Source: Massilia sp. R2A-15
Lineage (GTDB): Bacteria; Pseudomonadota; Gammaproteobacteria; Burkholderiales; Burkholderiaceae_D
Direction: 5' to 3'
Length of the DNA stretch: 64,000 nucleotides
Assembly (NCBI RefSeq): GCF_030704305.1
Contig: NZ_CP131935.1
Location: forward strand, 1,426,001 to 1,490,000
Made by a program: the position numbers and the translations under genes
Part shown: positions 52,816 to 57,443 of the stretch, piece by piece
Layout of the letters: each line of letters starts with the position of its first letter
Numbering within the stretch: the first letter of the stretch is position 1
Notes under the pieces: generated by a model
What the model saw: the letters and a program-made list of their open reading frames with translations, nothing else
What the model was told of the DNA's origin: nothing
The model's database searches: none

Positions 52816-53286
52816 ATGCCGTTCGAATTACCGGAAATTAATTTGCCTGCAGCGTTGGCCGACGCCCGCGTCGATGCCATCAGCCACGGCTTGCCCTATG
52901 CGGGCCGCATCAGCCCTCCGGCGGCCTGGGAGCTCGCGTCCCGCGGCCAGGCCTTGCTGGTCGATGTCCGCAGCAACGAGGAGCGCGTCTTCGTCGGGTA
53001 TGTCCCCGGCAGCGTGCATGTGCCCTGGGCCACCGGCACGGCCTTGATTCGGAACCCGCGGTTTGTCCGCGAGCTGCTGGCCAGGCTCGGCAGCAAGGAC
53101 AAGATCGCGCTGCTGTTGTGCCGCAGCGGCAAACGCTCGGCGCTCGCGGCGGAGGCGGCGGCCAAGGCCGGCGCGGCGCTGGTGTACAGCGTGCTGGAAG
53201 GCTTCGAGGGCGACCTCGACGCCAGTGAGCAGCGCGGACACCGCAACGGCTGGCGCGCGCATGGCCTTCCCTGGGTGCAAAGCTGA
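52816..53286 (+). CDS. rhodanese-like sulfurtransferase (encapsulin operon)
   Basis: A 156-residue single-domain rhodanese with AWELASRGQALLVDVRSNEERVFVGYVPGSVHVPW and the active-site loop LLCRSGKRSALAAEA; the catalytic Cys is near residue 102. ATG 52816 follows GGAAGGGA and leaves out an upstream low-GC extension. It would carry persulfide sulfur, for example to or from the desulfurase in this operon. The stop codon overlaps the next start (TGATG). Rhodaneses are among the known partners of family 2A encapsulin operons. Confidence 0.9.
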   Translation: MPFELPEINLPAALADARVDAISHGLPYAGRISPPAAWELASRGQALLVDVRSNEERVFVGYVPGSVHVPWATGTALIRNPRFVRELLARLGSKDKIALLLCRSGKRSALAAEAAAKAGAALVYSVLEGFEGDLDASEQRGHRNGWRAHGLPWVQS

Positions 53287-54209
53287 TGGCGCTCTTCGAC
53301 ATCGACTCCATCGTGCACGAGCTGCACGACGCGCGCCGTCACTGGCGCCAGGCCCACCGTCGCGAAGGCGAAATGCGTGGCATCGAGTTTCCCTCGCGCG
53401 ACGCGATGGCGGCGCTCATCGGCCAGCTCAAGGGCGTGCTGTTTCCGATGCGGCTGGGGCCGCCCGACCTGCGCCAGGAAAGCGAGGACTATCACGTTGC
53501 CCATGCGCTCGACTCGGCCCTGCACTCGCTGCTGCGCCAGGCTTGCCTTGAGCTGACCTACAACGCGGCGCTGCACCGGCTGACCGGCGTGGACGCCGCC
53601 GCCGAAGCGCTGGAGGCCACGCGCACTTTCGGCGCCGCCCTGCCAGGCATTCGCTCCTTGCTCGACAGCGACGTGCTCGCCTCCTACCAGGGCGACCCGG
53701 CCGCGCGCAGCGTGGACGAAGTGCTGCTGTGCTACCCGGGCGTGCTGGCGATGATCCACTACCGCCTGGCGCACTGTCTGTACCAGCTCAAGCTGCCCAT
53801 GCTGGCGCGCATCGTCGGCGAACTGGCGCATGCGGCCACCGGCATCGACATCCATCCGGGCGCGCAGATCGGCGCCGGCTTCTTCATCGACCACGGCACC
53901 GGGGTCGTGATCGGCGAAACGGCTGTCATCGGCCAGCGCGTGCGCCTGTACCAGGCCGTCACGCTGGGCGCCAAGCGCTTTCCCACCGACGCCGACGGCA
54001 ACCCGCAAAAAGGCTTGCCGCGCCACCCGGTGCTGGAAGACGAGGTGGTCATCTACGCCGGCGCCACGCTGCTGGGACGTATCACGGTGGGCAAGGGTGC
54101 GGTCATCGGCGGCAACGTCTGGCTGACCCACGACGTGGCGCCGGGCGCGCGGATTTCCCAGGCCGCCTCGCGCGAGGAAGTGGTCAGCGCCCAGGGCCGC
54201 GCGGCATGA
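53286..54209 (+). CDS. epsC: serine O-acetyltransferase (EpsC/SrpH type)
   Basis: A 307-residue enzyme: helical N-terminal part (residues about 1-175) and a left-handed beta-helix of hexapeptide repeats (IDIHPGAQIGAGFFIDHGTGVVIGETAVIG, VLEDEVVIYAGATLLGRITVGKGAVIGGNVWLT). The His in FIDHGTG is the catalytic base. It makes O-acetylserine from serine and acetyl-CoA, the acceptor for sulfide in cysteine synthesis. Longer at the N-terminus than CysE, as in the SrpH/EpsC branch found beside family 2A encapsulins. Overlaps the XRE gene by four bases. Confidence 0.92.
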   Translation: MALFDIDSIVHELHDARRHWRQAHRREGEMRGIEFPSRDAMAALIGQLKGVLFPMRLGPPDLRQESEDYHVAHALDSALHSLLRQACLELTYNAALHRLTGVDAAAEALEATRTFGAALPGIRSLLDSDVLASYQGDPAARSVDEVLLCYPGVLAMIHYRLAHCLYQLKLPMLARIVGELAHAATGIDIHPGAQIGAGFFIDHGTGVVIGETAVIGQRVRLYQAVTLGAKRFPTDADGNPQKGLPRHPVLEDEVVIYAGATLLGRITVGKGAVIGGNVWLTHDVAPGARISQAASREEVVSAQGRAA

Positions 54210-54448
54210 GCGCGTCCGCCGCGACGCTGGGCCGCAGCTTCGGCATCGGGGTGCGCCGCCTGCGCGAGGAGCGCTGCTGGTCGCAGGAGCAACTGGCCGA
54301 GCAGGCCGGCCTGAACCGCTCCTATGTCGGCGAAATCGAACGCGGCGACGTCTCCGTGTCGCTATGCACCGTGGCCAAGCTGGCCGACGCCTTCGGACTG
54401 GCGCCGTCGGCGCTGGTGGGCCGCGGTGAAAGCATCGCTGTCGCTTAA
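54206..54448 (+). CDS. XRE family transcriptional regulator
   Basis: An 80-residue protein consisting of one Cro/cI-type helix-turn-helix: GIGVRRLREERCWSQEQLAEQAGLNRSYVGEIERGDVSVSLCTVAKLADAFGL. ATG lies inside the acetyltransferase stop codon. No effector domain. Between it and the encapsulin gene is a near-palindrome (54505-54523) that could be its operator. It may control the shell and cargo genes separately from the upstream rhodanese-acetyltransferase pair. Confidence 0.9.
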   Translation: MSASAATLGRSFGIGVRRLREERCWSQEQLAEQAGLNRSYVGEIERGDVSVSLCTVAKLADAFGLAPSALVGRGESIAVA

Positions 54449-54504
54449 TTTACACACACACTGCTTGGTGGCGATAGACGGTTGAAGAGGAAAGTGCATT
54501 CCGA

Positions 54505-54523
54505 GAAACTAAGTCTGAGTTTC
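54505..54523. promoter_or_regulatory. palindromic site upstream of the encapsulin gene
   Basis: The 19-bp element has arms GAAACT and AGTTTC around AAGTCTG; 16 of 19 positions are symmetric (GAAACT.AG.CT.AGTTTC). It lies 56 bp before the shell-protein ATG and 56 bp after the XRE stop codon. Candidate operator for that regulator or for a cysteine/sulfur regulator; not matched to a known consensus. Confidence 0.55.
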
Positions 54524-54579
54524 CTGATCAGAATTCTTTCTCGCGCTTCTTTTCTTTCCTTTTTTACCGGGGGTATCAC

Positions 54580-55533
54580 ATGGCAGAGGGTGAAGTTACA
54601 GGCACAATCGACGGCACGGCCGTTCTTGGCGATTTCGCGGCGCGGCAACTTGCCAACGCCACCAAAAGCGTTCCCCAGCTCGAGACCATCAGCCCGCGCT
54701 GGCTGACCCACCTGCTGCAGTGGGCGCCGGTGGAGGCGGGCGTGTATCGCCTCAACAAGGTGCGCAACCCGGAGGCGATCAAGGTCCGCTGCACCGCGCG
54801 CGAGCACGAAAATCAGTTGCCGCGCACCTATGTGGACTACGAGGAGCGGCCGCGCGAGTATGTGCTCAACGCGGTGTCGACGATCCTCGACGTGCATACC
54901 CGCGTGTCCGACCTGTACAGCAGCCCGCACGACCAGATCAAGGAACAGCTGCGCCTGACGATCGAGACGATCAAGGAGAACCAGGAAAGCGAGCTGATCA
55001 ATAATCCGGACTACGGCCTGCTGGCCCAGGTGACCGATTCGCAGCGCATCTTTCCGCTGACCGCGGGCGGCGCGCCGACACCGGACGACATGGATGAGCT
55101 GCTCACCAAGGTGTGGAAGGAGCCGGCATTTTTCCTGACCCATCCGCTGGCCATTGCCGCGTTTGGCCGCGAGGCCACCCGGCGCGGCACGCCTCCGCCC
55201 ACCGTCAGCCTGTTCGGTTCGCAATTCGTCACCTGGCGCGGGATTCCCCTGATTCCATCGAACAAGGTGCCTGTGGCCGATGGCAAGAGCAAGATCCTGC
55301 TGCTGCGCGTCGGTGAAAAGCGCCAGGGGGTGTTGGGCCTGTTCCAGCCGGGCTTGGCGGGCGAGCAGGGGCCGGGGCTGTCGGTGCGCTTCATGGGCAT
55401 CAACCATCACGCGATCTCGTCCTATCTGATCTCGCTGTACTGCTCGCTTGCCGTGCTCGCCAGCGACGCCCTGGCGGTGCTTGACGATGTGGAGATCGGC
55501 AAGTATCACGACTATCCCGATACTTACAAGTAA
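54580..55533 (+). CDS. srpI: family 2A encapsulin nanocompartment shell protein
   Basis: A 317-residue protein with an HK97-type capsid fold by family match: LGDFAARQLANATKSVPQLETISPRWLTHLLQWAPVEAGVYRLNKV, PRTYVDYEERPREYVLNAVSTILDVHTRVSDLYSSPHDQIKEQLRLTIETIKENQESELINNPDYGLLAQV, and later FFLTHPLAIAAFGREATRRGTPPPTV and ISSYLISLYCSLAVLASDALAVLDDVEIG. These are hallmarks of SrpI-type shell proteins, which assemble into about 24-25 nm T=1 compartments around cysteine desulfurase. Length matches known SrpI. Eight bases separate it from the cargo gene. Location in an operon with acetyltransferase and rhodanese strengthens the assignment. Confidence 0.95.
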   Translation: MAEGEVTGTIDGTAVLGDFAARQLANATKSVPQLETISPRWLTHLLQWAPVEAGVYRLNKVRNPEAIKVRCTAREHENQLPRTYVDYEERPREYVLNAVSTILDVHTRVSDLYSSPHDQIKEQLRLTIETIKENQESELINNPDYGLLAQVTDSQRIFPLTAGGAPTPDDMDELLTKVWKEPAFFLTHPLAIAAFGREATRRGTPPPTVSLFGSQFVTWRGIPLIPSNKVPVADGKSKILLLRVGEKRQGVLGLFQPGLAGEQGPGLSVRFMGINHHAISSYLISLYCSLAVLASDALAVLDDVEIGKYHDYPDTYK

Positions 55534-55541
55534 GGCGCGCC

Positions 55542-57443
55542 ATGAGCCTTCCTAGTCCCTCGCGCGCGTCGGCGCCGGATCTGGTGGCGCCCGTGGCGCC
55601 GTTCGACCCGGCATTGCTGGCGCAGATGGCCAGCGCCCTGTACGGCGCCTTGCCCTCGGGTCCGCCCGGGGTGCAGGCGCCGGCCAATATTGCCCCGCCG
55701 GGCTCGCCCCTCGCCAGTCCGGCAGGCTTCGGCCCCGGCGTGCCGGGAACGCCGATGCCGCAGGGTCAGGTGCCGGGCGCCAATTTGCTGCCGGCTTCGC
55801 CGACACCGGTTCTGTCCATGGGCAACCGGGCGCCGTCGCTGTTGCCGGATGCGGTCGCCGGCAATGGCGTGCCCGACAAGGTGCACAGCGCCGTGCCGGG
55901 CTACGAGCCGCGCCTCGGCGGGGCATTGCTCGGTGTGGCGCCGCCGTCGTCACCGGCGCTGTCGGCGGACCCGATTGCGAGCTACTACTTCCTCGAGCAC
56001 GGCAATGGCCATCCCGCTTCGGCGACGCCAGACCCGCTCGACGCGCTGGTCGCGCCGGCCGTGCCGCAGGCGCCGGTTATGTCGCCCGCGCCGGCCCCGG
56101 CACTGCCGGCGACTGGCGCGCCCGAGTACTACTTCGTCGATGCGGTGGTGCTGCCCAACGATTACGTCACCCCGGCCCCGCACGCCGGCGCGCCGCTGGC
56201 AGGCGGCGGGCGTCATGCGGGCTTCGATGTCCACGCCGTGCGGCGCGATTTCCCGACCCTGCAGGAGCGCATCAACGGCCACCAGCTGGTATGGTTCGAC
56301 AACGCCGCCACTACCCACAAGCCGCAAGCGGTGATCGACCGGCTCGCGCAGTATTACGCGCATGAGAACTCGAACATCCACCGCGCCGCCCATACGATGG
56401 CCGCGCGCGCCACCGACGCCTACGAGAACGCGCGCGAAACTGTGCGCCGCTTCATCAATGCGCCCGAGGTCAGCGAAGTCATCTTCGTGCGCGGCGCCAC
56501 CGAGGCGATCAACCTGGTCGCCAAGACCTGGGGGGCGCAGCACATCGGGGAGGGCGACGAGATTATCGTTTCGCACCTGGAGCACCACGCGAACATCGTG
56601 CCGTGGCAGCAACTGGCCAGGTCCAAGGGGGCGCGCCTGCGCGTGATTCCGGTGGACGACAGCGGCCAGGTGCTGCTCGACGAATACCAGAAGCTGCTGA
56701 ACGATCGCACCAAACTGGTCGCCATCACGCAGGTGTCGAACGCGCTGGGAACGGTCACGCCGGTGAAGGAAATCGCCGCGATGGCGCGGCGCGCCGGCGC
56801 CCGCGTGCTGGTCGATGGCGCCCAGTCGGTCTCGCACATGCGCACCGACGTGCAGGACCTCGGCGCCGACTTCTTCGTCTTCTCTGGCCACAAGGTGTTC
56901 GGCCCGACCGGGATCGGCGCGTTGTGGGGCAAGCGCGAAGTGCTCGAGGACATGCCGCCGTGGCAGGGCGGCGGCAACATGATCGCCGACGTCACCTTCG
57001 AGAAGACCGTGTTCCAGCCGATTCCCAACAAGTTCGAAGCGGGCACCGGCAACATCGCCGATGCGGCCGGTCTGGCCGCGGCGCTCGATTACGTGAGCCG
57101 GGTGGGCATCGAAAACATCGCCCGCCACGAGCACGAGCTGCTGGAGTACGGCATGCGCGAGCTGGGCGCGATCAGGGGCGTGCGCCTGATCGGCACTGCC
57201 GCCGGCAAGGCCAGCGTGATGTCGTTCCTGCTGGCCGGGTACAGCACCGCCGAGGTCGGGGACGCGCTCAACGAGCAGGGCATCGCGGTGCGCACCGGGC
57301 ACCATTGCGCCCAGCCTATCCTGCGCCGTTTCGGGACGGAGACCACGGTGCGGCCATCGCTGGCGTTCTACAACACCTTCGATGAGATCGACCTGCTGGT
57401 GAAGGTGGTGCGCGGCTTGGCCGGACGCGGGCGATCGCTGTAG
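55542..57443 (+). CDS. family 2A encapsulin cargo protein: cysteine desulfurase
   Basis: A 633-residue protein. Residues about 230-633 are a SufS-type cysteine desulfurase: WFDNAATTHKPQAVI, VRGATEAINLVA, SHLEHHANIVPW, VDGAQSVSHM, FSGHKVFGPTGIG with the PLP Lys (451) and TGHHCAQP with the catalytic Cys (589). Residues about 1-225 are Pro/Ala/Gly-rich and predicted disordered, the encapsulation region of family 2A cargo. Within it are an amphipathic helix (FDPALLAQMASALYGALP, 21-38) and two aromatic motifs (SYYFLE near 147, EYYFVD near 195). It takes sulfur from L-cysteine, leaving alanine, inside the shell. Confidence 0.95.
   Translation: MSLPSPSRASAPDLVAPVAPFDPALLAQMASALYGALPSGPPGVQAPANIAPPGSPLASPAGFGPGVPGTPMPQGQVPGANLLPASPTPVLSMGNRAPSLLPDAVAGNGVPDKVHSAVPGYEPRLGGALLGVAPPSSPALSADPIASYYFLEHGNGHPASATPDPLDALVAPAVPQAPVMSPAPAPALPATGAPEYYFVDAVVLPNDYVTPAPHAGAPLAGGGRHAGFDVHAVRRDFPTLQERINGHQLVWFDNAATTHKPQAVIDRLAQYYAHENSNIHRAAHTMAARATDAYENARETVRRFINAPEVSEVIFVRGATEAINLVAKTWGAQHIGEGDEIIVSHLEHHANIVPWQQLARSKGARLRVIPVDDSGQVLLDEYQKLLNDRTKLVAITQVSNALGTVTPVKEIAAMARRAGARVLVDGAQSVSHMRTDVQDLGADFFVFSGHKVFGPTGIGALWGKREVLEDMPPWQGGGNMIADVTFEKTVFQPIPNKFEAGTGNIADAAGLAAALDYVSRVGIENIARHEHELLEYGMRELGAIRGVRLIGTAAGKASVMSFLLAGYSTAEVGDALNEQGIAVRTGHHCAQPILRRFGTETTVRPSLAFYNTFDEIDLLVKVVRGLAGRGRSL

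What the first reader, a model, noticed from the sequence alone, without database searches (positions are those of the whole stretch)
52816..57443. Family 2A encapsulin nanocompartment operon for sulfur metabolism
Five genes on one strand with overlaps of 1 to 4 bp between the first three: rhodanese, serine O-acetyltransferase, XRE regulator, SrpI-type HK97-fold shell, and cysteine desulfurase with a 225-residue disordered N-terminal extension. Such a set is the known family 2A encapsulin system (described from Synechococcus SrpI and related operons). What is unusual here is the tight coupling of the acetyltransferase to an XRE regulator and the rhodanese leading the operon in a betaproteobacterium beside accessory-looking DNA. 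It may concentrate sulfane or elemental sulfur in the compartment.
Basis: partly seen in the sequence, partly recalled or inferred. Interest (0 to 1): 0.85.

Follow-up and report, generated by a model that had tools for sequence, protein, structure and literature searches.

The report
Sulfur-compartment operon with dedicated switch
This is a genuine, already described kind of bacterial protein-shell operon for handling sulfur, and comparing it with its relatives suggests that the small regulator inside it controls the shell genes through its own conserved DNA site, a site that in many relatives is written into the regulator gene's last codons.

Summary
The five genes are there and form a Family 2A encapsulin operon: shell and cargo pass the curated NCBIfam profiles. 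The kind is known; serine acetyltransferase and rhodanese are its commonest accessory genes (PMC8346489, passages).

What looks new is the XRE gene's role. It resembles the C (controller) proteins of restriction-modification systems. An element, TTGRYGGCTATAGCMTGTTGA, precedes the shell gene in 97 of 99 discovery loci with the XRE and 1 of 12 without, and in 7 of 7 (one weakly) against 0 of 22 loci not used for the model. Its dyad also lies upstream of rhodanese in 58 of 70 XRE loci and 0 of 7 without. In 53 of 105 sites it is exactly the last seven XRE codons, stop included, with rare codons.

In the window the shell site is present (54465-54485) but diverged, and no rhodanese-side site is recognisable. 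DNA binding and the sign of regulation are inferred. My literature searches found no description of this switch.

The parts
52816..53286 (+). rhodanese-like sulfurtransferase, single domain, loop CRSGKR
   Evidence: PF00581 1.8e-11; loop
53286..54209 (+). serine O-acetyltransferase, EpsC type
   Evidence: NF041874 162.4 bits over cut-off 150; TIGR01172 cysE 171.6 bits, under its cut-off 210.65
54206..54448 (+). 80-aa XRE regulator, HTH domain only; SQE at residues 26-28, recognition helix LNRSYVGEIERG at 36-47
54465..54485 (+). predicted XRE operator upstream of the shell gene, TTGGTGGCGATAGACGGTTGA (right half diverged from the family consensus)
   Evidence: PWM 27.1 bits, the only hit of 8 bits or more in the 64-kb window; dyad 12.1, above the maximum (11.9) of 1719 background windows. 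The window's own site is one of the 93 used to build both models. Only exact match in the genome to a pattern widened to fit it
54482..54487 (+). predicted -35 (TTGAAG), overlapping the right edge of the operator
   Evidence: same position in relatives
54505..54510 (+). predicted weak -10 (GAAACT, 3 of 6 matches to TATAAT), 17-bp spacer; inferred transcription start near 54517
54580..55533 (+). Family 2A encapsulin shell protein (SrpI-like)
   Evidence: NF041162 513 bits over cut-off 380; 8t6r E 3.8e-162
55542..57443 (+). cargo cysteine desulfurase (SufS type)
   Evidence: NF041166 898 bits over cut-off 800; 8kg1 1.4e-187
55542..56207 (+). about 222-residue Pro/Ala-rich N-terminal extension of the desulfurase (presumed shell-targeting), with two YYF[LV] motifs
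   Evidence: comparison with the motifs reported in PMC8049743

Best explanation
The locus is a Family 2A encapsulin operon. SAT feeds cysteine synthesis (inferred), the shell-enclosed desulfurase takes sulfur from cysteine, and the rhodanese is the likely outside sulfur acceptor (as proposed in PMC8346489). The operon is run by its own 80-aa XRE protein, which works like a C (controller) protein of restriction-modification systems. As a dimer it binds a dyad, roughly TGRYGGCTA-TMGCCRYCA. In relatives one copy lies just upstream of the rhodanese-SAT-XRE genes, at or just past a -10-like box, where it would repress and keep the regulator low. A second copy lies upstream of shell-desulfurase, centred about 42.5 bp before the inferred start and fused at its right edge to the -35. 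There the XRE would contact sigma-70 through its SQE triad and activate a weak promoter. So accessory enzymes and regulator come first, shell and cargo later. Shown: gene identities, the element, its co-occurrence with the XRE, and the second site in relatives. Inferred: DNA binding, dimer, signs of regulation, timing. In the window itself only the shell site is recognisable.
For: Profiles. Element in 97 of 99 XRE+ and 1 of 12 XRE- discovery loci (the window among them), Fisher 1.9e-12. In 29 loci not used for the model (best DNA matches of 400 nt or more to discovery loci at most 88% identical): 7 of 7 XRE+ score 1.0 or more, 22 of 22 XRE- score -6.7 or less; six of the seven score 20.5 or more, and the 1-bit cut was set after seeing L144 at 1.0. 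Of ten further loci one new XRE+ (L156) scores 39.5 and 7 XRE- score -2.0 or less; two more XRE+ (L157, L158) are duplicates of discovery loci. Genus g32, 8 of its 10 shell genomes fetched: 2 XRE with site, 2 XRE without site, 4 with neither. The two XRE+ loci without site, L009 and L011, share G42S and R46C, seen in no other of 101 aligned XREs. A dyad model from the left half of shell sites finds a site upstream of rhodanese in 58 of 70 XRE+ and 0 of 7 XRE- loci (99th percentile of 1719 background windows). Codons: Ile is ATA in 53 of 53 where the element ends the XRE gene, against 194 of 6647 in the matched parts of shell, CD and SAT. C-protein kinship: C.AhdI 4.2e-18, C.BclI 2.9e-17, top Foldseek hits, PADLOC control protein 1e-15; SQE in 96 of 101, the sigma-70 contact of C proteins (PMC4824078, passages).
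Against: No binding or expression data. The window has no rhodanese-side operator (best dyad -7.2) and a diverged shell site. 12 of 70 XRE+ relatives have no rhodanese dyad over threshold. L107 has the element without a detected XRE. The helix argument is weak: L009 and L011 are one genus, and L137, whose helix is altered elsewhere (LNRSCPGGIERG), keeps a partial site (20.5). In C-protein systems the site overlapping -35 is the repressing one (PMC3695507, PMC4824078, passages). GTTGA, the -10 letters and the spacing range were in the search pattern, so their invariance in the 93 sites is partly by construction. In 349 genomes the exact core has 7 hits and the reversed control 11, so only the placement of 6 hits before shell genes is informative. 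Loci are related: the 99 XRE+ shells form 30 clusters at 90% DNA identity. NCBIfam's best XRE hit is a HipB-like antitoxin model under its cut-off.
Confidence: 0.66

Rival explanations
1. The XRE is a plain repressor at both promoters: it blocks -35 at the shell gene and the -10 region at rhodanese, and an unknown sulfur signal releases it.
For: In PvuII and Csp231I the C-protein site overlapping -35 is the repressing one (PMC3695507, PMC4824078, passages). The site touches -35. Small XRE proteins often repress (recalled).
Against: Shell -10 boxes are poor: 54 of 93 match TATAAT at only 3 of 6. The dyad meets only the first bases of -35, in one register (partly by construction), whereas the register at rhodanese varies. 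SQE in 96 of 101. The XRE has no sensor domain.
Confidence: 0.27
2. The element is not an XRE site but the binding site of another regulator, or merely the conserved end of the XRE protein; its link with the XRE is hitch-hiking.
For: In 53 of 105 sites the element is the end of the XRE coding sequence. L107 has the element without a detected XRE. L137 keeps a partial site with an altered helix.
Against: 43 of 105 sites are intergenic and 9 overlap the gene by only 4 bases, yet the element is kept; in the coding cases the codons are rare ones. The same dyad passes the threshold upstream of rhodanese in 58 of 70 loci with the XRE and 0 of 7 without.
Confidence: 0.11
3. Ordinary Family 2A encapsulin operon driven by the global sulfur response only; the XRE is a minor passenger.
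For: The shell is induced by sulfur starvation in Synechococcus (PMC8049743, passages); shell, SufS2, SAT-2 and rhodanese transcripts are about 1000- to 1400-fold higher on isethionate than on sulfate in Rhodobacter capsulatus (PMC11423573, passages). Many loci elsewhere lack the XRE. A second inverted repeat lies upstream of rhodanese, also in the XRE- locus L096.
Against: XRE and element go together across the Burkholderiales sampled.
Confidence: 0.15

Closest known systems
Family 2A encapsulin / SrpI-CyD system of Synechococcus elongatus (cysK-epsC-srpI-cyd-rhodanese)
   Same: Shell and cargo families, SAT and rhodanese partners, N-terminal cargo extension (PMC8049743, passages)
   Different: Different gene order, cysK present, no XRE annotated beside it and no element found there
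Burkholderiales Family 2A operons (Variovorax, Rugamonas, Herbaspirillum, Paraburkholderia and others)
   Same: Same five genes in the same order in 65 of 80; same XRE, same element
   Different: In 53 of 105 sites the element is the end of the XRE gene, and 58 of 70 XRE+ loci have a rhodanese-side dyad; the window has an intergenic, diverged shell site and no recognisable rhodanese-side site
C (controller) proteins of type II restriction-modification systems (C.AhdI, C.BclI)
   Same: Size, XRE fold, SQE triad, palindromic boxes in promoters (PMC4824078, passages)
   Different: No restriction or methylation gene among the proteins scanned beside it; core GGCTATAGCC rather than GACT-tat-AGTC; one box rather than OL+OR recognised at the shell promoter

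Membership tests
Family 2A encapsulin | Shell matches the 2A profile above the curated cut-off | tested here: met
   NF041162 513.1 against 380; 2B profile 399.8 against 400, just below
Family 2A encapsulin | No cNMP-binding domain (which marks 2B) | tested here: met
   Pfam finds only PF19307 in the 317-aa shell
Family 2A encapsulin | Cognate SufS-type desulfurase cargo with an N-terminal extension | tested here: met
   NF041166 898 against 800; extension of about 222 residues. Disorder itself was not computed
Family 2A encapsulin | N-terminal cargo motifs LARLANEFFS and AASPYYFLDG (PMC8049743) | tested here: inconclusive
   Window has PALLAQMASALY and ASYYFLEHG/EYYFVDA. By crude patterns 46 and 39 of 71 relatives match; start codons were guessed
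Family 2A encapsulin | Assembles particles that load the cargo | not testable with these tools
   needs expression and electron microscopy
C (controller) protein | Small HTH-only XRE protein closest to C proteins | tested here: met
   C.AhdI 4.2e-18, C.BclI 2.9e-17 lead the solved chains; PADLOC control protein 1e-15
C (controller) protein | SQE sigma-70 contact triad | tested here: met
   S26-Q27-E28 in the window; 96 of 101 aligned XREs; role from PMC4824078
C (controller) protein | Palindromic box in its own promoter | tested here: inconclusive
   over threshold in 58 of 70 XRE+ loci; not met in the window
C (controller) protein | Encoded in a restriction-modification system | tested here: not met
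   no such gene in the operon or among the three flanking proteins scanned; wider flanks not scanned. It works like, but is not filed as, a C protein

The most novel reading that the evidence does not exclude
A restriction-modification-type controller was captured to run an encapsulin: it holds down its own rhodanese-SAT-XRE unit and switches on shell plus cargo after a delay and sharply, so that cells make the sulfur compartment in an all-or-none manner. In many lineages the switch's operator, -35 box and the regulator's stop codon are the same DNA.
Probability: 0.3. Interest if true: 0.68.

Novelty: new variant of a known kind. Interest (0 to 1): 0.5.

Why it matters
Which dedicated regulator turns Family 2A encapsulins on is not described in what I could read. 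A named regulator with a precise operator makes it directly testable when, and in which cells, the sulfur compartment is built, and gives a compact switch for expressing it. An operator written into the last codons of its own regulator gene, sharing the stop codon with the -35, is also an instructive case of overprinted control DNA.

Tried and rejected
1) First operator guess (GAAACT-N7-AGTTTC, 54505-54523) failed: not found in the relatives' XRE-shell gaps; its first half is the predicted -10. 2) That the five-gene order is special to this strain: rejected. 3) That conservation reflects only the XRE C-terminal peptide: rejected by the intergenic sites and rare codons. 4) Empty site in the genus: galactarate dehydratase (to 51263) is kept at 77-78% in two of four congeners, but DNA similarity stops there, so no clean empty site. 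The downstream GGDEF-EAL gene was useless for synteny, with dozens of paralogues. 5) A second inverted repeat before rhodanese was sought in four relatives' genomes: counts near the reversed control; left unexplained. 6) Other operators in the window's genome: 12 hits at up to 3 mismatches against 14 for the reversed control, one of them exact. 7) Shell tree: no supported donor. 8) Literature: searches of the open library (listings seen, of at most 20 papers each; one search listed 20 of 846) showed no XRE or operator described for Family 2A; most subscription papers and all supplements were out of reach.
Full report
Observation. The five genes exist at the stated places and strand, with the stated 1- and 4-bp overlaps. 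The shell passes the curated Family 2A profile (513 bits, cut-off 380) and the desulfurase the curated Family 2A cargo profile (898, cut-off 800). The closest solved shell by sequence is 8t6r. The desulfurase's best matches to solved SufS-type enzymes start at residues 223-228, so its N-terminal extension is real. Expected catalytic motifs of rhodanese and desulfurase are intact. The genome holds one copy.

Known kind. PMC8346489 (passages read) counts 1281 Family 2A operons with desulfurase cargo and names SAT and rhodanese as the most enriched accessory genes of the desulfurase systems. PMC8049743 (passages) shows loading through the N-terminal extension, faster desulfurase activity inside the shell and induction by sulfur starvation, and proposes sulfur storage. 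PMC11423573 (passages) tabulates a 'major membrane protein I', SufS2, SAT-2 and rhodanese set whose transcripts are about 1000- to 1400-fold higher on isethionate than on sulfate in Rhodobacter capsulatus. So the operon as such is not new.

Is the layout unusual? No. Among the 80 closest loci (the best of at least 595), 65 have the order rhodanese-SAT-XRE-shell-desulfurase; the rest are 6 without XRE, 3 without a desulfurase in the piece held, 2 without SAT, and 4 shorter ones. With the XRE start nearest the SAT stop, the 4-bp overlap occurs in 46 of 63. Further afield this XRE was not found: none in the Synechococcus, Methylosinus, Aliarcobacter and Acinetobacter loci, and only a different, divergently transcribed XRE gene in Azospirillum. 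Shells occur in 87 of 294 genomes of the family sample, 34 of 349 of the order and 17 of 398 of the phylum; none of the four other genomes of the genus has one.

The element. Aligning the DNA before the shell gene showed a fixed element. I searched 111 discovery loci (window, 30 of the family, 80) with GTTGA-N18-20-[GCT]ANA[CA]T and found it in 93. Letters outside that pattern proved equally fixed: ATAG 93 of 93, and two to four bases before it G 93, G 73, C 92; the flanks are weakly conserved. The consensus is TTGRYGGCTATAGCMTGTTGA. Its last bases are a -35 (TTGANN), followed after 17 (78 of 93) or 18 bp (15 of 93) by a weak -10, GACACT in 40 and GATACT in 21; 54 of 93 match TATAAT in only 3 positions. 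GTTGA, the -10 letters and the spacing range were in the search pattern, so their constancy is partly by construction. The dyad axis falls about 42.5 bp before the inferred start, the place from which lambda CI activates PRM (recalled).

Link to the XRE. By weight matrix (1 bit or more within 400 bp), 97 of 99 discovery loci with the XRE have the element and 1 of 12 without. The XRE+ shells form 94 clusters at 97% and 30 at 90% DNA identity, so counts are not independent events. The model was then applied to 29 loci of the order survey not used to build it; their best DNA matches (400 nt or more) to discovery loci are at most 88% identical. 7 of 7 with XRE score 1.0 to 41.4, 22 of 22 without score -6.7 or less. 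The 1-bit cut was set after seeing the weakest, L144; at 20 bits it is 6 of 7 against 0 of 22. Some of these loci are cut short by contig ends. Of ten more loci, L156 (XRE+, 39.5) and seven XRE- (-2.0 or less) agree; L157 and L158 duplicate discovery loci. In 26 of 28 XRE-negative loci with a SAT, less than 240 nt lie between SAT stop and the shell match, little room for the gene. In genus g32 (8 of 10 shell genomes fetched) the states alternate: two with XRE and site, four with neither, and two, L009 and L011, with an XRE but no site. These two share a recognition helix, LNRSYISEIECG, seen in no other of 101 aligned XREs, but they are one genus, and L137 has another altered helix (LNRSCPGGIERG) and keeps a partial site. 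L107 has a site but no XRE found; it may be a remnant.

Second site. A dyad model made only from the left half of the shell sites was scanned over 210 nt upstream of the rhodanese match. In 58 of 70 XRE-positive loci the best site exceeds the 99th percentile of 1719 background windows; in 0 of 7 XRE-negative loci it does. Some are near-perfect palindromes, such as TGATGGCTATCGCCACCA in L059. They lie at or just past a -10-like box in a variable register, a repressor-like place. Over 1.2 Mb of loci, weight-matrix hits of 10 bits or more lie only before shell or 43-164 bp before the rhodanese match, and none appears in one shuffle of each locus. In 349 genomes of the order the exact 16-bp core occurs seven times, six of them 96-131 bp before a shell match; the reversed control occurs 11 times, so the total is at chance level and the placement is the evidence.

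Overprinting. In 53 of 105 sites (97 discovery, L117, seven test loci) the element coincides, in frame, with the last seven codons of the XRE gene, mostly Leu-Ala/Met/Thr-Ala-Ile-Ala-Cys/Gly-stop. Isoleucine is ATA in 53 of 53, against 194 of 6647 in the matched parts of shell, desulfurase and SAT; cysteine, where used, is TGT in 41 of 41 against 45 of 531. Nine sites overlap the gene by 4 bases only and 43 are intergenic, the window's among them, 16 nt past the XRE stop. The constraint is therefore on DNA.

The regulator. The 80-aa XRE is HTH only and is modelled with mean pLDDT 94. Its nearest solved relatives by sequence are C.AhdI and C.BclI, also the top Foldseek matches, and PADLOC's best model is a control protein; NCBIfam's best is a HipB-like antitoxin model, under its cut-off. 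S26-Q27-E28, the triad by which C proteins touch sigma-70 region 4 (PMC4824078, passages), is SQE in 96 of 101. C proteins both activate and repress; in PvuII and Csp231I the -35-overlapping site represses and the upstream site activates (PMC3695507, PMC4824078, passages). Here I recognise one site, whose edge merely meets -35. I therefore favour activation at the shell promoter, at about 0.6 against repression; this is an inference.

The window itself. The shell site is TTGGTGGCGATAGACGGTTGA at 54465-54485, the only match of 8 bits or more in 64 kb (it is one of the 93 training sites) and the only exact match in the 5.03-Mb genome to a pattern widened to include it. Its right half is diverged, as is the shell protein (long branch). 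Upstream of rhodanese no dyad is found (best -7.2), although parts of the promoter align with relatives such as L059 and L100. The window may have lost, or changed, autoregulation; the two-site model rests on relatives.

Verdict. Identity as a Family 2A operon is practically certain and not new. The XRE-operator pair is well supported by comparison, untested at the bench, and not found in the literature I could search (listings, plus passages of the papers named).

Noticed in passing
upstream of rhodanese in relatives, e.g. L033, L036, L048, L059 (about 25-55 bp before the dyad): A second conserved inverted repeat, roughly AAnCGACT-TTTn-AGTCGTTTG, also visible in the XRE-less L096; possibly the site of another (sulfur?) regulator. 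Counts elsewhere in four genomes were near the reversed control.
   Followed up: partly
window:52749-52770: The rhodanese promoter of the window lacks the dyad found in most relatives; GTTGAGGCATTATCGCGCCAAC here may be a changed version.
   Followed up: partly
window:51263: DNA similarity to two congeners stops right after the galactarate dehydratase gene. The 188-aa ORF 51537-52103 matches no Pfam, NCBIfam, PADLOC or PHROGs family.
   Followed up: partly
L107:6895-6915: An operator-like element (23.9 bits) before a shell gene with no XRE, SAT or rhodanese detected; possible remnant.
   Followed up: partly
L086 and L103: Paraburkholderia xenovorans LB400 carries two operons of this kind, on chromosomes 3 and 2.
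   Followed up: no
phage records CAKLQH020000001.1 and CAKLQF020000001.1: Two 'Acinetobacter phage MD-2021a' records of 329-379 kb hold a Family 2A shell and SufS gene; more likely bacterial DNA filed as phage than a phage-borne encapsulin (inference).
   Followed up: no
H6-H8 (plasmid collection): Acinetobacter baumannii 'plasmid' records of 3.7-4.1 Mb holding the shell gene look like misfiled chromosomes (inference).
   Followed up: no
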